Assembly: GCA_030652575.1 (NCBI GenBank)
Contig: JAUSQI010000138.1
Location: 1-39,023 of the forward strand
Direction of reading: 5' to 3'
From: Stagnimonas sp.
GTDB taxonomy: Bacteria; Pseudomonadota; Gammaproteobacteria; Nevskiales; Nevskiaceae
DNA length: 39,023 nt
Part shown: piece after piece, positions 1,989-39,015 of the stretch
Numbering within the stretch: position 1 is the stretch's first letter
Layout: every line of letters begins with the position of its first letter
The notes under the pieces: generated by a model
Told to the model about the DNA's origin: nothing
The model's input: the letters and a program-made list of their open reading frames with translations, nothing else
Databases searched by the model: none
Program-made: the position numbers and the translations under genes

Positions 1989-2129
1989 TTAGCCCGACAG
2001 CAGCCCGCCGACGATGCCGCTGATGTCGGCAATACGGCCGTTGAAGGCCAGCAGCACGGCCGAGAGGCCGATCAGCACACCCCCGCCGAGGCCGCGCAGG
2101 ATGGAAGCGGTTTCAAAGACGGTGGTCAT
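1989..2129 (-). pseudogene. YeeE/YedE transporter N-terminal remnant (46 codons)
   Basis: A short reading frame starting at the ATG at 2129 encodes GGGVLIGLSAVLLAFNGRI followed by ADISGIVGGLLSG and a stop. This matches the first transmembrane hairpin of YeeE/YedE (sulfur transport, DUF395) proteins, which normally run to about 140 residues or more. Here the frame ends after 46 residues, and only 13 nt separate its stop from the persulfide dioxygenase start, so no room remains for the rest of the gene. In related sulfide-detoxification operons intact YeeE-type genes sit at this position. I read it as a gene truncated by an internal deletion, though a functional 46-residue membrane peptide cannot be excluded. 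Confidence 0.65.
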
Positions 2130-2428
2130 GACCTTTTGTCTCAAGTGGCTTCGACAGCGCAGCGTAGCGTCCAGCAAGCGGTTGTGCAGGGCGGCGCTGC
2201 GGCGGCACGCCCAGTCGCGGATCGGGGTGCGCTGCGCCAGGCCGAGGCCGGCACGAAGCCTTCGCACTTGCCGCAGAGGAGGGCAGGGACGTGCCGCTCT
2301 CCGCACAGTCGGAGAATGTGCCCGGCGGCGACTGACGATGCCCTATGGCTGCGTCAGCGACTGTGCGGGTATATTCGCTACTCGTTCAATTAAGGCCGCG
2401 CATTCGAGCGGTCCGTGAGGAGATCACC
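2130..2428. other. 299-bp intergenic region without a supported gene
   Basis: This divergent region lies between the leftward sulfur genes and the rightward aldehyde dehydrogenase. A possible -10 box TATATT is at 2370-2375 facing the dehydrogenase, but I see no convincing -35 box at the right distance. A minus-strand stretch around 2180-2330 keeps coding-like GC composition but shows no recognisable protein and no clear start, so it may be decayed coding sequence. A GAGGAG ribosome-binding site at 2417-2422 belongs to the dehydrogenase. Confidence 0.4.
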
Positions 2429-3871
2429 ATGACCGCAGCCGTACTTGCCATGCCGGAACTGACCACGCTCGACGCCGAAGTGCGCCGCGTGTTCGAGAAA
2501 CAGTTCGATACCGCCATCCGTCTGCGCCGCTCCACGGCAGACGAGCGCATCGCCAAGATCAAAAAGTTGAAGGAATCGGTGCTCGCGCACGCGGCCGCGC
2601 TGCAGGTGGCGATGGAAAAGGACTTCCGCAAGCCGGCGGTCGAGGTGGATCTCACCGAGATACTGCCGGTGGTGGCCGAGGCCAACGACGCCATCCGCCA
2701 TACCCGCAAACGCATGAAGCCGCAGGGCGTGTGGCCGACCATGCTCACCGGCGGCCTCAAGGGCTACATCCAGTTCGAGCCGCGCGGCCGCACGCTGGTC
2801 ATCGCGCCGTGGAACTACCCGGTCAATCTCTGCTTCGTGCCGCTCATCAGCGCGATCAGCGCGGGCAACACCGCCATCGTCAAGCCGAGCGAGATGACGC
2901 CGCACACCACGGCGGTGATCGTGAAGATCATCAAGGAGACGTTCAGCGAAGACGAAGTCGCCATCTTCGAAGGCGATGCCGCCACCTCCACGGCGCTGCT
3001 CGCGCTGCCGTTCGACCACATCTTCTTCACCGGCAGCCCGGCGGTCGGCAAGGTGGTGATGGCCGCCGCCGCCAAGCACCTCACCAGCGTGACGCTGGAA
3101 CTCGGCGGCAAGTCGCCGACCATCGTCGATGAAACCGCCGATCTCGAGCTCGCCGCCAAGAACATCCTCTGGGGCAAGTACACCAACGGTGGGCAGACCT
3201 GCATCGCGCCTGATCATGTGTATGTGCACGAGTCGGTGAAGGCGGCGTTCATCGAGAAGGCGAGTGCGGTGCTGAAGAACAGCTACGGTGCGACCGATGC
3301 CGAGCAGTCGCGCTCGCCCTGCCTGAGCCACAGCGTCAACCAGCGCCACGCCGCGCGCGTTGCCGGCCTGCTGGAAGATGCCAAGGCCAAGGGTGCCACC
3401 GTGCTGGCCGGCGGTGGTGTGAACATCGAGGACCAGTGGGTCGCGCCGACGCTGCTCACCGACATCCCCAAGGACGCGAAGATCATGTCCGAGGAAATCT
3501 TCGGTGCGCTGCTGCCGATCATCGGCTACAGCAAGCTGCAGTCCGTCATCGACGAGATCAACGCCAACCCCAAGCCGCTCGCGCTCTACGTGTGGAGCAA
3601 GAACGACGAGAACATCAACAAGGTGATGAAGGAGACCTCCTCGGGCGGCGCCTGCATCAACCACACCGTGGTGCACTACCTGCACGGCAATCTGCCGTTC
3701 GGTGGCGTCAACAATTCCGGCATCGGTGCGGCGCACGGCATCTTCGGCTTCAAGGCCTTCAGCCACGAGCGCGCGGTGATCCGCACGCGCTTCATGGTGG
3801 CGAAGATCTTCTTCCCGCCGTATTCCAACTTCATGAAGCGCATGGTCCAGACGCTGATGAAGATCGTCTGA
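2429..3871 (+). CDS. NAD(P)-dependent aldehyde dehydrogenase, ALDH3/coniferyl-aldehyde type
   Basis: This 480-residue enzyme oxidises aldehydes to carboxylic acids with NAD(P)+. Visible motifs in order are PWNYPVNL, GNTAIVKPSE, the cofactor-loop FTGSPAVGK, LELGGKSP with general base Glu224, GGQTCIAPDH with catalytic Cys258, and EEIFGALLPI. The 34-residue Glu-Cys spacing and the length are those of class 3 and coniferyl-aldehyde-dehydrogenase-like enzymes, which often act on medium- or long-chain fatty or aromatic aldehydes. The ATG at 2429 follows a good GAGGAG site, whereas earlier in-frame codons would add an unrelated leader. The C-terminus is basic and hydrophobic (FFPPYSNFMKRM), as in membrane-associated fatty aldehyde dehydrogenases. 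The gene appears monocistronic and ends at a strong terminator. Substrate is not readable from sequence. Confidence 0.9.
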   Translation: MTAAVLAMPELTTLDAEVRRVFEKQFDTAIRLRRSTADERIAKIKKLKESVLAHAAALQVAMEKDFRKPAVEVDLTEILPVVAEANDAIRHTRKRMKPQGVWPTMLTGGLKGYIQFEPRGRTLVIAPWNYPVNLCFVPLISAISAGNTAIVKPSEMTPHTTAVIVKIIKETFSEDEVAIFEGDAATSTALLALPFDHIFFTGSPAVGKVVMAAAAKHLTSVTLELGGKSPTIVDETADLELAAKNILWGKYTNGGQTCIAPDHVYVHESVKAAFIEKASAVLKNSYGATDAEQSRSPCLSHSVNQRHAARVAGLLEDAKAKGATVLAGGGVNIEDQWVAPTLLTDIPKDAKIMSEEIFGALLPIIGYSKLQSVIDEINANPKPLALYVWSKNDENINKVMKETSSGGACINHTVVHYLHGNLPFGGVNNSGIGAAHGIFGFKAFSHERAVIRTRFMVAKIFFPPYSNFMKRMVQTLMKIV

Positions 3872-3892
3872 AGCCAGCCAGCCCGTTTCACG

Positions 3893-3920
3893 AAGCCCCG
3901 CCCCGAGCGGGGCTTTTTTT
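3893..3920 (+). terminator. Rho-independent terminator after the aldehyde dehydrogenase gene
   Basis: The stem AGCCCCG (3894-3900) pairs perfectly with CGGGGCT (3908-3914) around a 7-nt loop and runs into seven T residues. It separates the aldehyde dehydrogenase transcript from the RND pump operon. Confidence 0.9.
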
Positions 3921-3945
3921 GGGCGCGGGCCTGAGCTGGTTGAAC

Positions 3946-3963
3946 TGATACCGATCGGTCACA
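3946..3963 (+). promoter_or_regulatory. TetR-type operator at the RND pump promoter
   Basis: TGATACCGATCGGTCACA is centred on the perfect palindrome ACCGATCGGT with TG/CA ends. It matches 16 of 18 positions of a site at 19603-19620, beside a TetR gene, and 15 of 18 of the reverse complement of the site at 19634-19651. A -35-like TTGAAC ends immediately before it (3940-3945), so a bound repressor would cover the core promoter of the pump gene. The -10 box itself is not clear. Confidence 0.7.
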
Positions 3964-3998
3964 CTCTATGCAGTCATCGTCCTTACCAAGCAACCGCC

Positions 3999-6900
3999 AT
4001 GTGGCTGATCGAACTCGCCCTCCGCCGCCCGTATACCTTCGCGGTGCTCGCCATCGTCATCCTGCTCGGCGGCGGCCTCGCGGCAAAGCAGGTGCAGAAA
4101 GACATCTTCCCCAACATCGAGATCCCGGTGATTTCGGTGATCTGGACGTATCCCGGCCTCGGTGCCTTCGACTTCGAGCGGCGCATCACCCAGTACTCCG
4201 AGAACTCGATCTCCGCCAACGTCAATGACGTCGAGCGCATCGAGAGCCAGACCACCGAAGGCGTGGGCCTGATCCGCATCTACTTTCACCCCGGCGCAAA
4301 AAGCGAGGTGGCGCTGGCACAGGCAACGGCCATCAGCCAGACCATCCAGCGCATCATGCCGCCCGGCGTCACGCCGCCGATCATGGTGCGCTACCGCGCC
4401 GACTCGGTGCCGCTGATCCAGCTCGCACTCAGCAGTGATTCGATGAGCGAGGCGCAGATCTTCGACTACGCCAATACCCGCATTCGCCCCAGCATCGCCT
4501 CGGTGCAGGGCATCACCATGCCGGCGCCATACGGCGGTGCGGCGCGACTCATCAACGTCGATATCGACCCGGCCGCCCTGCGTGCGCGTGGCCTGTCGGC
4601 TCGCGATGTGAGCGAGGCCGTGGGCCTGCAGAACCTCACCCTGCCTGCGGGTGCCGCCAAGATCGGCGATACCCAGTACGCGGTGCAGCTCAACAGCTCG
4701 CCGCTGCTGTTGCAGCAGCTCAACGACCTGCCGGTGCGCGAGGTGGGCGGCAGCATGGTGTACCTGCGTGACGTCGCCCAGGTGCGCGACGGGCAGGAGC
4801 CGCAGATCAACATCGTGCGCGTCGATGGCCAGCGCAGCGTGCTGATCCACATCCTCAAGAACGGCAACGCCTCGACGCTCGATATCGTCGAGGGCGTCAA
4901 GGCGCTGCTGCCGTCTATCCAGGCCGCCGCACCCGAGGGCATGAAGATCGAGGCGCGTTTTGACCAGAGCACCTTCGTCAGCGGCGCGATGGAGCATGTC
5001 GCCATCGAGGGTCTGATTGCGGCCACGCTCACCGCCACCTTCATCTTGCTGTTCCTCGGCTCCTGGCGCTCGACCCTGATCGTCGCAGTGTCGATCCCAC
5101 TGTCGATCTTGTCTTCCATCGCGCTGCTCACCGCCTTCGGCCACACGCTCAACCTGATGACGCTCGGTGGCTTGGCACTCGCCATCGGCATCCTGGTGGA
5201 CGAGGCGACGATCACCATCGAGAACATTCATCGCCATCGCAACATGATCATTGACGGCCGGGGCAAGGATCTGTACGACGCGATTCTGATCGGCTCCACC
5301 GAGATCGCCTTCCCGGCGCTGGTGTCGGCGCTGGTGCTCACCATCGTCTTCGTGCCGGTCTGGTTGCTTGGCGGGGTGGCGCGCTACCTGTTCATCCCGC
5401 TCGCGCTCGCGGTGGTGTTCGCGATCCTTTCCAGCTACGTGCTGTCGCGCACGCTCACGCCGGCGATGGCGAACTGGCTGCTGCGCCACGAGCCGCACGA
5501 AGACGAGCACGCGCCGCCGAAGAATGGCTTCGATCGCATCCACAAGGGGTTCAATCGTGGCTTCGAGAATCTGCGCAGCCGTTACGCACGCGCGCTGCAA
5601 TGGAATCTCGCCCATCGCGGCACCGCGCTTGCCGCGATGATTCTCGTCGTGGTCTGCACCAGTGCCGTGCTGCCGTTCGTGGGCCGCGAGTTTTTCCCCA
5701 CCGTCGATGCCGGGCAGATCCGCATGCACGTGCGGGCGCCCACCGGCACGCGCATCGAGCGCACCGAGCAGATCTTCTCGGCGGTGGAGCAGGAAGTGCG
5801 CACGCTGCTGGGCCGCGATGTGGCGCTGATTCTCGACAACATCGGCCAGCCGGCCGTGAAATACTCGATGGCCTTCGGCGACAGCGTCACCGTCGGCACC
5901 CACGACGGCGAGGTGCTGATTGCCCTCGCGCACGATCGCCAGCGCGGCGCGCCGGAGTGGATGCAGGTACTGCGCACTGAACTACCCAAGAAGTTTCCCG
6001 ACCTCGATTTCTATTTCCAGCCGGCGGACATCGTCAGCCAGATCCTCAACTTCGGCCTGCCGGCGCAGATCAACGTCAAGGTGGTGGGTTTCAAGCGGAT
6101 TGAGAACTTTGCCTTGGCGCAGCAGCTGAAACAGAAGATCGCCGCCATCCCCGGCGCGGTGGACGTGACCGTGCACCAGACCAACGACCTGCCGACGCTG
6201 AAGGTGGATGTCGATCGCCAGCGCGCGCTGCAGCTCGGCATCACCCAGCGCGATGTCGCCAACGATCTGCTGGTGACGCTCAGCGGCTCCGGTTCGGTGA
6301 CGCCCAATTTCTGGATGGACCCTGCCACCGGCAATCCCTATCGCATCGCCGTGCAGCTGCCCGAGCGCGAGATGAGCAGTGTCGAGAGCCTGGTGGGCAC
6401 GCCGGTGTCGGTCACGGGCGGTACCACGCAACTGCTCGGCAACCTCGGCACTGTCAGCCGCGCAACCGGGCCCTCGGTCATCAGCCACTACAACGTGCAG
6501 CCGAGCTACGACCTGTTCGTGAGCGTGCACGGCCGCGATCTGGGTGCGGTGGCCGCCGACCTCGACAAGGTGCTGGACGAAGCCCGCAAACAACTGCAAC
6601 CGGGCAACCGCATCGAGCTGCGCGGCACCGTCACCGCCATGCGTGACGCCTTTTCGCAGCTGGGCTTCGGCCTGCTGGGCGCTGCGGTGCTGGTTTACCT
6701 GCTGATGGTGGTCAACTTCCAGAGCTGGCGTGATCCCTTTATTGTGCTGATGGCCTTGCCGGCGGCCGGTGCGGGCGTGATCTGGGGCCTCTGGCTCACC
6801 GGCACTTTCTTCAGTGTGCCCGCGCTGATGGGCGCGATCATGACTATCGGCCTTGCCACCGCGAACTCCATTCTGCTGGTGACCTTCGCCAACCAGCGCA

Positions 6901-34517: not shown

Positions 34518-36326
34518 TTAAAGACGCAGGCTGCCGCCCTGCAGTTGTGCGAACAGCGCGGGCGTCAGCGGTACATAACCCTTGCTGCGTTCTTGCAGCA
34601 CATACAGCGGCTCGGTGATGGCACCGGGGTCGAAGCCTTCGCGCTTCAGGTCGACCTTCTTGAACTTGAAGGTGCCGGTCACTTCCTGCTCGCCCTTGAG
34701 CCGCACGAACAGCGGCACCGCGTAGGCGGGCAGATGCGTGCACAGGTGCTGCGCGAGGGCGGCACCGTCGAAGCTGCCTTGGAGCGTGATGGCGGCCATG
34801 CCGGCGCGGCCATCGGTGCCGGGCACGCTGACGCCGTAGACCACCGCCTGCTCGATGCCGCTGAAGTTGTTGAGCGCGCTCTCGACCTCGGTGGTCGCGA
34901 CGTTTTCGCCCTTCCAGCGGAAGGTGTCGCCGACGCGATCGACGAACTGGATATGGCGGCAGCCTTGGTCGCGCACCAGATCGCCGGTGTTGAACCAGCG
35001 ATCGCCTTTCTTGAACACGTCGTGCAGCACTTTCGCATCGCTGGATTTTTTGTCGGTGTAGCCGTCGAAGGGCGCGCGTTCGCTGATCTCGGCAATCAGC
35101 AGGCCGGTGCCGCCCTTGGGCACTTTCTGCAGAAAGCCATTCGCGTCGCGCAGCGTCTGTTCGTGTTCGGCATCGAAGTTGACGATGGCAAACGAGAGCG
35201 GCGAGAAACCCGCGGTGCGCGGCATGCCGAAGGCGTTGACGAAGGCGACGTTGCTCTCGCTCGCACCGTAGAACTCGCTCACCCGCTCGATGCCGAAGCG
35301 CTGCTGAAAGGCATCCCACAGTTCTGGCCTGAGGCCGTTGCCGACCATCAGGCGAATCGCGTGGTCGCGATCCTTCAGCGTTGCCGGCCGGTTGAGCAGG
35401 TAGCGGCAGAGCTCACCGATGTAGCAGAAGGCCGTGGCCTGCTGCTGGCGCACCTCGTCCCAGAAGCGGGTAGCGGAGAACTTGCGCGACAGCACCATCG
35501 TGCAACCGGAGCCCAGCACCGCGCCCCAGCTCACCGTCAGCGCGTTGTTGTGGTACAGCGGCAGGCAGCAATAAAACACATCCGTCGGCTTCAGCCGCAG
35601 CGCCATTTGCGAGAGACCCGCCATGCCGCGTAGCCAGCGGTAATGCGTCATGCGGCTGGCCTTGGGCAGGCCGGTGGTGCCGCTGGTGAACACGTAGAAA
35701 CAGGTCTCGCGCGCCTCGATCAGCGGCGTGGAAGGCGGATTGCTCTCGCGGCGCGATTCCGAGTCTTTGCGCAGGTCGGTGAAGCCGCTTTCGGCAGTGC
35801 TTTCGCCTTCCCAGAAATACACCAGGCGGTCATCGTTGCCGGGCTGGTACGGCGTGCTGGCCAGGGCCTCGCGGCACTCGGCGCCGACGATGAGCACGCG
35901 CGGGTCGATGAGACGGATGCTGTGCGCCAGCACCTCACCACGCTGCTGGTGGTTGAGCATGCCGGCGGCGGCACCCAGCTTGACCACGGCCGCGACGCAG
36001 GCCAGCGTCTCGGGGCGGTTCTCCATCAGGATGCCGACGCTGTCGCCCGCCTTCACGCCCGCCGAGGCCAGGCTGGCCGCGATGCGGTTGGCCCAGGCGT
36101 TGAAGGCGGCGTAGGTCCAGCGGCGGTCTTCGAACACCATCGCCATCGCGCGCGGCGTGTTGGCGGCGTGGCGCTCGATCAGGAGGCCGATCGAGAGCTT
36201 GGTGGCGGGCTTGATCGTCGCGAGGTTCCACAGCCCGCGCAGCACGATGGGCAGGTCCGGCATGATCTTCAGCGACGCCAAGGCAATGTCGCTGACGCGG
36301 ATCTGGTCGGTCGGGGTGTCGCTCAT
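34518..36326 (-). CDS. Long-chain acyl-CoA synthetase (FATP/VLACS-type AMP-binding enzyme)
   Basis: The 602-residue enzyme has the AMP-binding motif YVFTSGTTGLPKASRMTH (residues 211-228), the FYGASESN motif near 350, the DLVRDQG motif, and a C-terminal region GTFKFKKVDLKREGFDP that ends shortly afterward. It resembles FadD6/FATP-type very-long-chain acyl-CoA synthetases, which activate imported fatty acids or sterol-derived acids with ATP and CoA. The ATG at 36326 follows GAGGAGAG. The SRPBCC gene lies just downstream; upstream, a 152-bp inverted-repeat element separates it from a FabR/DesT-like repressor gene on the same strand. Confidence 0.9.
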   Translation of the reverse strand: MSDTPTDQIRVSDIALASLKIMPDLPIVLRGLWNLATIKPATKLSIGLLIERHAANTPRAMAMVFEDRRWTYAAFNAWANRIAASLASAGVKAGDSVGILMENRPETLACVAAVVKLGAAAGMLNHQQRGEVLAHSIRLIDPRVLIVGAECREALASTPYQPGNDDRLVYFWEGESTAESGFTDLRKDSESRRESNPPSTPLIEARETCFYVFTSGTTGLPKASRMTHYRWLRGMAGLSQMALRLKPTDVFYCCLPLYHNNALTVSWGAVLGSGCTMVLSRKFSATRFWDEVRQQQATAFCYIGELCRYLLNRPATLKDRDHAIRLMVGNGLRPELWDAFQQRFGIERVSEFYGASESNVAFVNAFGMPRTAGFSPLSFAIVNFDAEHEQTLRDANGFLQKVPKGGTGLLIAEISERAPFDGYTDKKSSDAKVLHDVFKKGDRWFNTGDLVRDQGCRHIQFVDRVGDTFRWKGENVATTEVESALNNFSGIEQAVVYGVSVPGTDGRAGMAAITLQGSFDGAALAQHLCTHLPAYAVPLFVRLKGEQEVTGTFKFKKVDLKREGFDPGAITEPLYVLQERSKGYVPLTPALFAQLQGGSLRL

Positions 36327-36384: not shown

Positions 36385-36536
36385 AGAAGTCATCTCACAA
36401 ACTACTGCGCTCGACATTTTGCGTGTCGGCGGTGCTCGCCGTCCTCACGGCCACCAGGCCGCTGCGGGTGCTGCGGGTGCTGCGCTCCGGCGTCACGCAA
36501 ACTGCCTTCGCTCGCTACGTTTGTGAGATGACTTCT
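36385..36536. mobile_element. 152-bp MITE-like element with perfect 18-bp terminal inverted repeats
   Basis: AGAAGTCATCTCACAAAC at 36385-36402 recurs as its exact reverse complement at 36519-36536. An inner pair TTTGCGTG (36418-36425) and CACGCAAA (36494-36501) continues the symmetry. The centre holds a GCTGCGGGT tandem (36461-36484, 2.7 copies). No coding sequence is present. GGTC occurs at both outer edges (36380-36383, 36537-36540), which could be a 4-bp target duplication if the element includes T36384. A non-autonomous transposon relic, or a structured transcript element, are both possible. Confidence 0.6.
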
Positions 36537-36543
36537 GGTCAAA

Positions 36544-37203
36544 CTAATCCCAGCGGTTCATCGCCTTCATCGCCACCGCACCGGTCATCAGCGCGTCGAT
36601 GAAGTGTGCAGTGCGGCGCACCAGTTCTGCGCGCCGCCGGGGTTCTTCGAGATAGTCGAGCGTGCGGTGGAATACCTGCTCGACGATCGGCTCGGCCAGC
36701 TCGTCCAGCATGTCGGCGGTGATGCCGGGCACGCCGTTGGTGGCGAGAATGTCTTCCGACATTTCTGCTGCCACCAGCTTGATGCGCGCACGGATCGCCT
36801 GTTGCAGGCGGCCGGACGAACCATGCAATTCACGCACGCCGACGATGAAAGCCTCGGGATGCTGGCGCGCGTAGTCGAACACGTATTCGACGGTGCGCGC
36901 GCTCACCAGTTCGACCGGCACGCCGCTCAGGCGGATGGCCCGCAGGGCAGGGGCGAGGTCCTGTGCGAACTCGTCGATGATGGCGACGCTCAGCTCGTCC
37001 AGCGACTTGAAGTGGCGATAGAAGGTGTTGGGGTTGAGGCCCGCCATGCGGCCGAGTTCGCGCACGCCCAGGGCCAGCAGGCTGCGCTTCTCTGCGGCGA
37101 GCTTGAGGGCGGCGGCAATCAGCCGCTCGCGGCCACCGGCCTCCGGCAGCTCGCGCTCGGCCAGGGTGCTACGGGTGCTCTTGCGGGGTTTGACGAGGCT
37201 CAT
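36544..37203 (-). CDS. TetR-family regulator, FabR/DesT-like
   Basis: The 219-residue protein has an N-terminal helix-turn-helix (RERLIAAALKLAAEKRSLLALGVRELGRMAGLNPNTFYRHFKSLDEL, about residues 24-70, one domain) with NTFYRHFKSLDEL typical of FabR/DesT. The ligand domain includes FIVGVRELHGSSGRLQQAIRA. FabR and DesT repress unsaturated fatty-acid genes in response to acyl-CoA pools, so an acyl-CoA or related ligand is likely. It is divergent from the flavin monooxygenase across a 34-bp palindrome and lies upstream of the acyl-CoA synthetase. The ATG at 37203 has only a weak ribosome-binding site. Confidence 0.85.
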   Translation of the reverse strand: MSLVKPRKSTRSTLAERELPEAGGRERLIAAALKLAAEKRSLLALGVRELGRMAGLNPNTFYRHFKSLDELSVAIIDEFAQDLAPALRAIRLSGVPVELVSARTVEYVFDYARQHPEAFIVGVRELHGSSGRLQQAIRARIKLVAAEMSEDILATNGVPGITADMLDELAEPIVEQVFHRTLDYLEEPRRRAELVRRTAHFIDALMTGAVAMKAMNRWD

Positions 37204-37222
37204 GCAAGGATTGTAGTCAGGC

Positions 37223-37269
37223 TTGACGCTCGCGTATACAGTCGTCTACATTGGAGTAGACAACTGTAT
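37223..37269. promoter_or_regulatory. Divergent promoter region with 34-bp TetR palindrome
   Basis: ATACAGT-C-GTCTAC (37236-37249) and GTAGAC-A-ACTGTAT (37256-37269) form a 14-bp-arm palindrome with one mismatch around ATTGGA. A plus-strand -35 TTGACG (37223-37228) and -10-like TACATT (37247-37252) overlap it, as does a minus-strand -35-like TTGTCT. Occupancy would repress both the regulator and the monooxygenase. Confidence 0.75.
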
Positions 37270-37282
37270 GCATTCGTTGCTT

Positions 37283-37377
37283 GTCATTCCCGCGAAGGCG
37301 GGAATCCAGGCAGCGCGAAGCGCACCACCTGTCGCAAAGAAAACAGATACCTGGATTTCCGCCTCCGCGGGAATGAC
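37283..37377. repeat. dRS3-like inverted repeat, copy 1
   Basis: Two 27-bp arms (37283-37309 and 37351-37377) match inversely at 25 of 27 positions. Each contains the ATTCCCGCG..GCGGGAAT core of a repeat class found in many beta- and gammaproteobacteria and named dRS3 in Neisseria. The 41-bp spacer is not conserved with copy 2. It lies in the 5' region of the monooxygenase gene. Confidence 0.8.
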
Positions 37378-37400
37378 AACCACTAAAGATGGAGTGAGAC

Positions 37401-38936
37401 ATGGCAGTGAGCAAACTCAATTCAGCAATCCATACAACGGTGGACGTGGCCATCATCGGCACCGGCTTTGCCGGGCTGGGCATGGCGATGCAGCTGAAAG
37501 AGGCGGGCCTGAACGACTTCGTGCTGCTGGAGAAAGCCGGTGAAGTCGGCGGCACCTGGCGCGACAACCACTACCCCGGCTGTGCCTGCGATGTGCCGAG
37601 CCATCTCTACTCCTTCTCGTTCGCGCAGAACCCCGAATGGTCGCGGCTGTTCTCGCCGCAGCCTGAAATCCTCAAGTATCTGAAGCGCGTCACCGACGAG
37701 CGCGGCATCCGCGAGCACATCCGCTTCAACAGCACGCTCAGCGAAGCGCGCTGGGACGAAGCTGCCGGCGTCTGGAACATCCGCACCGCCGAAGGCGATC
37801 GCTACACCGCCCGCATTCTGATTTCCGGCATGGGCGGCCTGAGCCGCCCGGCGTACCCGCAGGGCATCAAGGGCCTTGAAAACTTCAAGGGCAAGACCTT
37901 CCACAGCCAGGACTGGGATCACGCCTACGACTTGAACGGCAAGCGCGTGGCGGTGTTCGGCACCGGCGCCTCGGCGATCCAGTTCGTGCCGAAGATCCAG
38001 AAGCAGGCCGCGCGCATCGACCTCTACCAGCGCACCCCGCCGTGGATCACGCCCAAGCCCGACCGGCCGATGAGCGAGAGCACGCAAGCGCTGTTCAAGA
38101 AGCTGCCGGCTGTGCAGAACCTCCTGCGCAAGACCATCTACACGCTGCTGGAGGCCCGCGCCGTCGGCTTCGTCGTCAACCCCAGGATGATGGCGATCGA
38201 CGACAAGATGGCGCGCGCGCATTTGAAGAAGCAGGTCAAAGATCCCGAGCTGCGCAAGAAGCTCACGCCCGACTACAAGATCGGCTGCAAGCGCGTGCTG
38301 ATCTCCAACGACTATTACCCCGCCGTGTCGAAACCCAACGTCAGTCTCGTCACCGAGGGCATCCAGGAGGTCAAGGCCCACAGCGTGATCGACGGCAACG
38401 GCGTGGAGCGCGAGGTGGACGCGATCATCTTCGGCACCGGCTTTCAGGCCACCGACCCGGTGCCGGGCAAGATGATCTTCGGCAAGGGCGGCGTCGATCT
38501 GCTCGACACCTGGCAAGACGGCCCCGAGGCCTACAAGGGCACGACGGTGGCGGGCTTCCCCAATCTCTTCCTCATCGTCGGCCCCAATGTCGGCTTGGGC
38601 CATAGCTCGATGGTCTACATGATCGAGTCACAGGTGGCGTATGTGATGGACGCGCTCAAGACCATGAAGCAGATCGACAAGCCGGTGATGGAAGTGAAGG
38701 CCGAGAAGCAGGCCGAGTTCAACGCCAGGCTGCAGGAGAAAACCCAGGGCACCGTTTGGAATACGGGCGGTTGCAAGAGCTGGTACCTGCACCCGAAGAG
38801 CGGCAAGAACGTCACGCTCTGGCCCGGCTTCACCTGGCAGTTCCGCAACGAGACCAAGAAGTTCGATACCGAGGCTTACGAGCTGACGGCGCTGGCGCAT
38901 ACCGCACCAATGGGAAAAAACGTCATTCCCGCGTAG
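37401..38936 (+). CDS. Flavin-containing/Baeyer-Villiger-type monooxygenase
   Basis: The 511-residue protein has the FAD-binding motif GTGFAG (residues 20-25), GGTWRDNHYPGCACDVPSHLYSF (conserved active-site segment), the BVMO-like fingerprint FKGKTFHSQDWDH (162-174), the NADPH motif VFGTGASA, and an ATG-like IFGTGFQATD in the second half. Such enzymes insert oxygen into ketones or oxidise heteroatoms with NADPH and O2. Substrate is unknown; ketone or steroid side-chain oxidation would fit the lipid-catabolic neighbours. The ATG at 37401 follows GGAGTGAG. The last codons, VIPA and the TAG stop, come from a dRS3-like repeat, so the C-terminus has been modified by the repeat. Confidence 0.92.
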   Translation: MAVSKLNSAIHTTVDVAIIGTGFAGLGMAMQLKEAGLNDFVLLEKAGEVGGTWRDNHYPGCACDVPSHLYSFSFAQNPEWSRLFSPQPEILKYLKRVTDERGIREHIRFNSTLSEARWDEAAGVWNIRTAEGDRYTARILISGMGGLSRPAYPQGIKGLENFKGKTFHSQDWDHAYDLNGKRVAVFGTGASAIQFVPKIQKQAARIDLYQRTPPWITPKPDRPMSESTQALFKKLPAVQNLLRKTIYTLLEARAVGFVVNPRMMAIDDKMARAHLKKQVKDPELRKKLTPDYKIGCKRVLISNDYYPAVSKPNVSLVTEGIQEVKAHSVIDGNGVEREVDAIIFGTGFQATDPVPGKMIFGKGGVDLLDTWQDGPEAYKGTTVAGFPNLFLIVGPNVGLGHSSMVYMIESQVAYVMDALKTMKQIDKPVMEVKAEKQAEFNARLQEKTQGTVWNTGGCKSWYLHPKSGKNVTLWPGFTWQFRNETKKFDTEAYELTALAHTAPMGKNVIPA

Positions 38937-39015
38937 GCGGGAATCCAGTCAGCGCAAGCGTCATGCCGCTCAACAGAGCCACAGAAACCTGGATTCCCGC
39001 CTACGCGGGAATGAC
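38922..39015. repeat. dRS3-like inverted repeat, copy 2, supplying the monooxygenase stop codon
   Basis: Two 27-bp arms (38922-38948 and 38989-39015) are perfect inverted copies and belong to the same family as copy 1. The TAG stop of the monooxygenase (38934-38936) is inside the left arm. The 40-bp spacer differs from that of copy 1. The hairpin could also act as a terminator, although no T-run follows within the window. Confidence 0.82.

What the first reader, a model, noticed from the sequence alone, without database searches (positions are those of the whole stretch)
37283..39015. A monooxygenase gene bracketed by two dRS3-like repeats, one supplying its stop codon
Two members of one repeat family (copy 1 at 37283-37377, copy 2 at 38922-39015) flank the gene, and the TAG stop lies in the left arm of copy 2. 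The repeat therefore shaped the C-terminus, and the pair could let the gene move or recombine as a cassette. In Neisseria such repeats are targets of phage-like integration. Both arms and the stop position are read directly.
Basis: partly seen in the sequence, partly recalled or inferred. Interest (0 to 1): 0.6.

Follow-up and report, generated by a model that had tools for sequence, protein, structure and literature searches.

The report
Two scattered palindromic repeats beside monooxygenase
A bacterial oxygenase gene happens to have two copies of a common scattered DNA hairpin next to it, one of which supplies its stop codon; the gene and its regulator occur together without the hairpins in many relatives, so the pair of repeats does not look like a gene-moving cassette.

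Summary
The repeats are real and correctly placed. Copy 1 (37283-37377) and copy 2 (38922-39015) are head-to-head dimers of a CGTC-1 type REP, the class to which Neisseria dRS3 belongs. The TAG at 38934-38936 lies in the left arm of copy 2, so the last four residues (VIPA) and the stop are repeat-encoded. The family is dispersed: 57 pattern matches in this 3.44-Mb Stagnimonas-like genome, reversed control 0. The cassette idea is not supported. The gene is half of a divergent tetR/monooxygenase pair: 65 of 80 related loci have it, none with a repeat between the genes. Copy 1 lies inside this unit. Copy 2 follows the family's habit: 22 of 30 tabulated clusters lie within 20 nt of a gene's 3' end. 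It fell in a C-terminal tail that varies among relatives. One pair this close is about what chance gives (0.5-0.7). Copy 1 stays unusual: it is the only divergent copy among 14 with genes called on both sides, and would put a strong hairpin in the mRNA leader. The contig ends 8 nt past copy 2, so the right flank is unknown.

The parts
36544..37203 (-). TetR-family regulator gene (219 aa, FabR-like), divergent partner of the monooxygenase
   Evidence: Pfam TetR_N 29 bits, cut-off 24; NCBIfam FabR 78.9 bits, below its cut-off 151; a divergent tetR hit within 2 kb in 65 of 80 related loci
37223..37252 (+). sigma-70-like promoter of the monooxygenase: TTGACG, 18-nt spacer, TACATT
   Evidence: only promoter-like match in 37150-37450 (shuffles mean 0.2); CTTGAC is invariant in the 7 aligned sequences; a consensus match, not a measured start site
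37234..37271 (.). palindromic operator-like site GTATAC-N4-GTCTAC-N6-GTAGAC-N4-GTATGC, overlapping the promoter; probable TetR site
   Evidence: shared with the six top-ranked related loci L111-L116; not general among the 66 pairs; binding is inferred
37283..37377 (.). repeat copy 1: CGTC-1 REP head-to-head dimer in the divergent tetR/monooxygenase promoter region, between operator and ribosome-binding site
   Evidence: no repeat between the genes in the 65 related loci with the pair
37391..37394 (+). GGAG, likely ribosome-binding site, starting 14 nt after the last base of repeat copy 1
   Evidence: read directly; inference
37401..38936 (+). flavin monooxygenase gene, 511 aa, type I Baeyer-Villiger-like
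   Evidence: Pfam FMO-like; best PDB sequence match phenylacetone monooxygenase; motif FKGKTFHSQDWD at residues 162-173
37884..37919 (+). codons of the Baeyer-Villiger fingerprint FKGKTFHSQDWD
   Evidence: the motif definition is recalled
38922..39015 (.). repeat copy 2: CGTC-1 REP head-to-head dimer overlapping the gene's 3' end
38922..38936 (+). last four codons (V I P A) and TAG stop of the monooxygenase, all inside the left arm of copy 2

Best explanation
These are two independent insertions of a dispersed, non-autonomous CGTC-1 (dRS3-class) REP dimer next to a resident gene, not the ends of a mobile cassette. The resident unit is a divergent tetR/Baeyer-Villiger-type monooxygenase pair with a shared promoter/operator region. 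Copy 1 entered between the operator/promoter and the ribosome-binding site; the intergenic region is 197 nt here against about 79 nt in the nearest orthologue. Copy 2 entered at the 3' end, as this family usually does, and because it overlapped the variable C-terminal tail it supplied the last four residues and the stop. Shown: the repeat identity, the gene pair without repeats elsewhere, the position of copy 1 inside the pair, the repeat-encoded stop. Inferred: that the repeats were gained here rather than lost elsewhere, that the mRNA carries both hairpins, and that the hairpins change expression only mildly or not in a selected way.
For: Dispersed family: 57 pattern matches in the genome, reversed control 0, and 116, 8, 21 and 1 matches in congeners G001-G004 (up to 2 mismatches). 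Pair without repeats: 65 of 80 related loci have a divergent tetR hit within 2 kb, 0 of 65 have a repeat between the genes; no arm (up to 4 mismatches) in the 18.7 kb around the G002 orthologue (69%) nor in the 19.0 kb around the G015 one. Promoter/operator shared by the window and the six top-ranked loci. Habit of the family: 22 of 30 tabulated clusters within 20 nt of a gene 3' end. C-terminal tails of 78 related loci run from 22 to 50 residues after the last WP-type motif. Expected number of pairs this close by chance 0.5-0.7; longest exact match between the copies 14 nt.
Against: The right flank of the gene is missing (contig end), so an empty site for copy 2 cannot be shown. The empty-site comparison for copy 1 rests on a 69%-identical orthologue and exact insertion borders cannot be read; intergenic lengths are estimated from aligned starts. 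The window's tail length (36) is the second commonest among the 78 (14 of 78), so it gives no sign of truncation or extension. The operator is not seen by the loose pattern in most of the 66 pairs (22 hits, several not palindromic). The pair is patchy in the genus: found in G002, while the best hits of G001, G003 and G004 lack a tetR hit in the 17 kb fetched and group elsewhere, so the region does gain or lose this pair, though not with these repeats as its ends. The tree does not firmly place the window (no supported small set holds it).
Confidence: 0.85

Rival explanations
1. Cassette: the two direct repeats are recombination or integration sites that let the monooxygenase gene enter or leave, as suggested for pilC1 between dRS3 copies in Neisseria.
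For: The copies are in direct orientation and bracket exactly one gene. [quoted passage not shown] Each copy-2 arm fits the Nf1 target subtype on one strand. The tetR/monooxygenase pair is patchy in the genus.
Against: The gene sits near a divergent tetR with no repeat between in 65 of 80 related loci; copy 1 interrupts the tetR/operator/gene unit instead of bounding it. Neither arm of copy 1 fits the Nf1 subtype. No PF01548 (IS110) and no PF05707 (Zot) match in this genome. Longest exact match between the copies 14 nt; such a pair is about what chance gives.
Confidence: 0.05
2. Regulatory use: copy 1 became a leader hairpin that tunes translation or stability of the monooxygenase mRNA, and copy 2, which holds the stop codon inside its stem, slows termination and protects the 3' end.
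For: Copy 1 lies between a predicted, shared promoter/operator and the ribosome-binding site. The leader stretch folds at -72.8 kcal/mol (z -8.3) and the 3' end at -67.5 (z -9.9), in both cases with 0 of 200 shuffles as stable. Copy 1 is the only divergent copy among 14 clusters with genes called on both sides.
Against: Any REP dimer folds like this wherever it lands. No repeat stands at this place in the 65 related loci with the pair. No expression data.
Confidence: 0.2
3. Assembly artefact at copy 2: the contig ends in a multi-copy repeat, so the stop-bearing repeat sequence could be borrowed from another copy.
For: 19 of the 33 repeat clusters examined lie within about 205 nt of a contig end (counted by hand); the window ends 8 nt past copy 2; the first 10 nt of contig C165 disagree with the window although its next 36 nt match the window's end exactly.
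Against: The stop lies within the first 15 nt of the repeat, on the side of the unique gene, where reads anchored in the gene should decide (inference). The 36-nt match of C165 includes the 8 nt outside the repeat.
Confidence: 0.08

Closest known systems
CGTC-1 REP family (Di Nocera et al. 2013, PMC3733652)
   Same: CGTC/TGTC tag, 8-bp stem starting AT, 4-nt loop, CCA tail, head-to-head dimers, preference for gene 3' ends, some intragenic copies (abstract, sections 6, 14, 15 and part 1 of 17 seen).
   Different: The paper names alpha-Proteobacteria as the main home; this host is of Nevskiaceae type (gammaproteobacteria, recalled). Copy 1 stands in a divergent promoter region. In the sections seen, stop codons are said to be supplied by GTAG repeats; here a CGTC repeat supplies one.
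Neisseria dRS3 (ATTCCC-N8-GGGAAT)
   Same: 3 of 4 arms fit the pattern; each copy-2 arm fits the Nf1-target subtype on one strand (definitions from PMC3898611 passages).
   Different: Copies here are scattered single dimers, not large mosaic arrays; no Zot and no IS110 N-terminal domain match in this genome.
GTAG REPs with RAYT transposases
   Same: Short palindromes, head-to-head dimers, gene-3' location (PMC3733652 sections seen).
   Different: Different tag. Of the 45 Y1_Tnp matches in 31 genomes 20 were fetched with flanks; none of these has a CGTC arm in the DNA held. Genomes with most Y1_Tnp matches (G008, G014, G023, 6 each) have 2, 0 and 0 arm matches, and G024 has 42 arm matches and no Y1_Tnp. 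Against this, the arm-richest genome, G001 (116), has the best-scoring Y1_Tnp (61.4 bits).
Type I Baeyer-Villiger monooxygenases (phenylacetone monooxygenase group)
   Same: Rossmann-type motifs and FxGxxxHxxxWD fingerprint.
   Different: 511 aa against 542 for the phenylacetone monooxygenase chain; substrate unknown. A role like that of the alkane monooxygenase AlmA was considered and not tested.

Membership tests
CGTC-1 REP | unpaired CGTC (or TGTC) tag at one end | tested here: met
   copy 1 TGTC on both arms, copy 2 CGTC on both arms (definition)
CGTC-1 REP | 8-bp stem beginning AT and 4-nt loop | tested here: met
   ATTCCCGC-GAAG-GCGGGAAT (copy 1 left), ATTCCCGC-GTAG-GCGGGAAT (copy 2, both arms); the right arm of copy 1 has one mismatched pair
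CGTC-1 REP | CCA tail | tested here: met
   all four arms continue CCAG; over the 44 arms counted in the fetched stretches the commonest bases after AATC are C, A, G (36, 38 and 39 arms)
CGTC-1 REP | many dispersed copies, mostly head-to-head dimers | tested here: met
   57 matches; 33 clusters in the fetched stretches and the window, 18 of them two-armed and 77-107 nt long, the others single arms or, at C16, one 26-nt palindrome matched on both strands
CGTC-1 REP | no dedicated transposase gene linked to the repeats | tested here: inconclusive
   no CGTC arm near the 20 Y1_Tnp places fetched, of 45 matches; other transposase families were not searched near the repeats
Neisseria dRS3 | ATTCCC(N8)GGGAAT | tested here: met
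   3 of 4 arms exact; right arm of copy 1 has one mismatch
Neisseria dRS3 | target of Nf1-type filamentous phage integration | tested here: inconclusive
   no Zot and no IS110 N-terminal domain match in G000, 95% complete; copy 2 fits the target subtype, copy 1 does not
Repeat-bounded gene cassette | repeats as borders of the gene wherever it occurs | tested here: not met
   no repeat between tetR and the gene in 65 of 80 related loci with the pair; no arm within 300 nt of the stop in 78 of 78 loci with a complete end
Type I Baeyer-Villiger monooxygenase | FxGxxxHxxxW(P/D) fingerprint between two GxGxx(G/A) motifs | tested here: met
   FKGKTFHSQDWD at 162-173, GTGFAG at 20 and GTGASA at 187; fingerprint recalled
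Type I Baeyer-Villiger monooxygenase | oxygenation of ketones to esters | not testable with these tools
   needs an enzyme assay

The most novel reading that the evidence does not exclude
The two REP dimers have rewired the expression of one gene: copy 1 is a stable hairpin inserted between operator and ribosome-binding site of a TetR-controlled promoter, and copy 2 holds the last codons and the stop inside a 28-bp stem, so that both initiation and termination of translation of the monooxygenase run through repeat hairpins, perhaps with stalling at the stop.
Probability: 0.12. Interest if true: 0.45.

Novelty: new member of a known kind. Interest (0 to 1): 0.2.

Why it matters
It shows how a common scattered hairpin can provide the end of a protein and rebuild a gene's leader without moving the gene, and it warns against reading two repeats around a gene as a cassette. 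The tetR/monooxygenase operator shared by this Nevskiaceae group is a testable regulatory unit, and this lineage offers a natural comparison of the unit with and without a leader hairpin.

Tried and rejected
Cassette or recombination between the copies: rejected on synteny, divergence of the copies and chance spacing.

RAYT mobilisation: no arm near the 20 Y1_Tnp places fetched (of 45), and no clear match between Y1_Tnp and arm counts over 31 genomes, judged by eye; G001, with most arms and the best Y1_Tnp score, speaks the other way.

Phage/IS110 integration: no PF01548 or PF05707 match in G000; G004 has both and 1 arm match; G001, with 116 arm matches, has one PF01548 match below the family cut-off.

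Other copies supplying stop codons: a mechanical scan gave eight further candidate frames. For the three longest (L208, L203, L214) the frame has no Pfam match while an overlapping frame on the other strand does. The other five (117-199 codons) were not tested, so I do not claim that copy 2 is the only one.

Contig C165 as the downstream neighbour: positions 11-46 match the window's end exactly, its first 10 nt do not. A translated comparison of its first 6 kb with stretches around the monooxygenase in ten relatives' loci gave only scattered low-similarity pieces or nothing, and its best DNA matches in congeners lie on other contigs. Left open.

An apparent repeat downstream of the gene in L114 is a 4-mismatch match over 1 kb away; one search had printed reverse-strand positions in reversed coordinates.

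Operator search across all 66 pairs with a loose pattern gave 22 hits, several not palindromic; only the seven-sequence alignment, chosen by me from the top of the list, is used.

AlmA: passages of PMC11784139 were seen; they report a repressor AlmR near almA in another bacterium. No sequence comparison was made.

Later REP papers: PMC12306157 and PMC6006769 were only searched for words; CGTC occurs there only in the reference to Di Nocera et al.. A search on REPs and ribosome stalling listed one review, not opened; the stalling idea is recalled and unsupported here. One search gave a listing only.

Full report
WHAT IS THERE. The window is a complete 39,023-bp contig (C150) of a 3.44-Mb, 177-contig draft genome, 95% complete. 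Its genus includes Stagnimonas: the same-genus contigs G003:C3 (499,372 bp) and G002:C50 (25,737 bp) have the lengths of contigs of Stagnimonas aquatica and Stagnimonas sp. C4 in the named collection (inference). The ORF at 37401-38936 encodes a 511-aa flavin monooxygenase (Pfam FMO-like). Its best PDB sequence match is phenylacetone monooxygenase, and it carries FKGKTFHSQDWD, the Baeyer-Villiger fingerprint as I recall it. Upstream, divergent, is a 219-aa TetR-family regulator.

THE REPEATS. Copy 1 (37283-37377) and copy 2 (38922-39015) are head-to-head dimers of a short palindrome, TGTC or CGTC-ATTCCCGC-loop-GCGGGAAT-CCA. This is how Di Nocera et al. 2013 define CGTC-1 REPs (8-bp stem, 4-nt loop, CCA tail), and that paper states that Neisseria dRS3 repeats are CGTC-1 elements (PMC3733652, section 6). 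The genome holds 57 pattern matches with up to 3 mismatches and none of the reversed control. In the four other genomes of the genus the number runs from 1 to 116 (up to 2 mismatches); among all 31 genomes of that search 15 have at least one.

STOP CODON. The last four codons (GTC ATT CCC GCG) and the TAG stop are the first 15 bases of copy 2. The stop is a loop variant: 4 of the 44 arms counted in the fetched stretches and the window have TAG as loop codon, 31 have AAG or CAG. With AAG or CAG the frame would run on and stop at TGA in the right arm of the same repeat (from the frame printed). Related loci have tails of 22 to 50 residues after the last WP-type motif (78 of 80 loci with a complete end; the window has 36, as do 14 of the 78), and the top-ranked one stops at the equivalent of residue 497. 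14 of the 78 end in VPA, none in VIPA, and none has an arm within 300 nt of the stop. The repeat did write this C-terminus, but in a part of the protein that varies among relatives.

IS IT A CASSETTE? The evidence says no. The 80 related loci are the best of 499 (a few genomes appear twice). In 65 of them a divergent tetR hit lies within 2 kb, and none of these 65 has a repeat between the two genes. In the six top-ranked loci and the window the intergenic DNA shares a promoter-like CTTGAC box and a long palindrome, GTATAC-N-GTCTAC-N-GTAGAC-N-GTATAC, with 28 invariant columns over 7 sequences; a loose pattern found it in only 22 of all 66 pairs, not always truly. In the window the repeat follows this site after 11 nt and precedes the ribosome-binding site; the intergenic distance is 197 nt against about 79 nt in Stagnimonas sp. 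C4. Copy 1 therefore lies inside a two-gene unit that exists without it. Within the genus the pair was found in G002. For G001, G003 and G004 the best monooxygenase hit has no tetR hit in the 17 kb fetched and groups elsewhere in the tree, which does not firmly place the window itself. No arm was found in the 18.7 kb around the G002 pair. The neighbouring acyl-CoA ligase (34518-36326) has relatives in G002:C17, G003:C3 and G004:C15 with no tetR hit in those stretches. So the pair as a whole has a patchy history; its left border would then lie left of tetR, not at copy 1 (inference), and its right border cannot be seen.

CHANCE. With 33 to 39 repeat places in 3.44 Mb, 0.5 to 0.7 neighbouring pairs closer than 1.64 kb are expected at random. 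One was seen here.

WHERE THE FAMILY SITS. In 30 fetched stretches of the genome and the window I found 33 clusters (up to 4 mismatches). Places C31, C152, C7, C86 and C100, with 2-3 mismatches, were not fetched. Three clusters were left out of the table (C163 and the second on C12, unclear genes; C88, inside a gene). Of the remaining 30, 22 lie within 20 nt of a gene's 3' end, copy 2 included. Of the 14 with genes called on both sides, 10 are between genes in one direction, 3 convergent and 1 divergent, the last being copy 1. Gene calls came from a simple script, not from a gene finder. This agrees with the published habit of REPs (PMC3733652 section 15). 19 of the 33 clusters lie within about 205 nt of a contig end (hand count), as does copy 2, so the repeats seem to break the assembly.

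HOW IT MOST LIKELY WORKS. The best reading is two separate insertions of a non-autonomous repeat. How CGTC REPs move is unknown; Di Nocera et al. conclude that they apparently lack a dedicated transposase (abstract). Here no CGTC arm occurs near the 20 Y1-transposase places fetched, of 45 found, and no PF01548 (IS110) or PF05707 (Zot) match exists in this genome. If transcribed from the predicted promoter, the mRNA would begin with a large hairpin (leader stretch -72.8 kcal/mol, z -8.3) and end with another that contains the stop codon (-67.5, z -9.9). Whether that alters expression is untested.

VERDICT. The finding is a new member of a known kind, with one mildly unusual feature: a REP dimer in a probably TetR-controlled leader.

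Noticed in passing
G000:C88:10781-10872 (L205, ORF 2086-4980 on the minus strand): A CGTC dimer lies in frame inside a 964-aa DNA-polymerase-I-like gene (named from its sequence; no family scan was run). Of the 29 other genomes' loci scanned, only G001 has an arm at the same place (3 mismatches, decayed); G002 and G003 have other proline- and glycine-rich stretches there. REP-tagged DNA polymerase I is reported in PMC3733652 section 15.
   Followed up: partly
window 36385-36536: A second, different repeat, partly self-complementary (68%), between the acyl-CoA ligase and tetR; related stretches at G000:C117:7658-7772 and C102, and in G001-G004. It lies at the left side of the tetR/monooxygenase pair.
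   Followed up: partly
window 37234-37271: Long palindromic operator-like site shared by the divergent tetR/monooxygenase intergenic regions of seven loci including this one.
   Followed up: yes
L191 (G000:C165) 1-46: Positions 11-46 match the window's last 36 nt, including 8 nt outside the repeat, but the first 10 nt differ; it may be the missing downstream contig.
   Followed up: partly
G000:C49:43397-43478 (L214): A signal peptidase II gene (Pfam) has a possible ATG start inside the right arm of a repeat (AATGAC), the mirror case of a repeat-supplied stop; a later start is equally possible.
   Followed up: no
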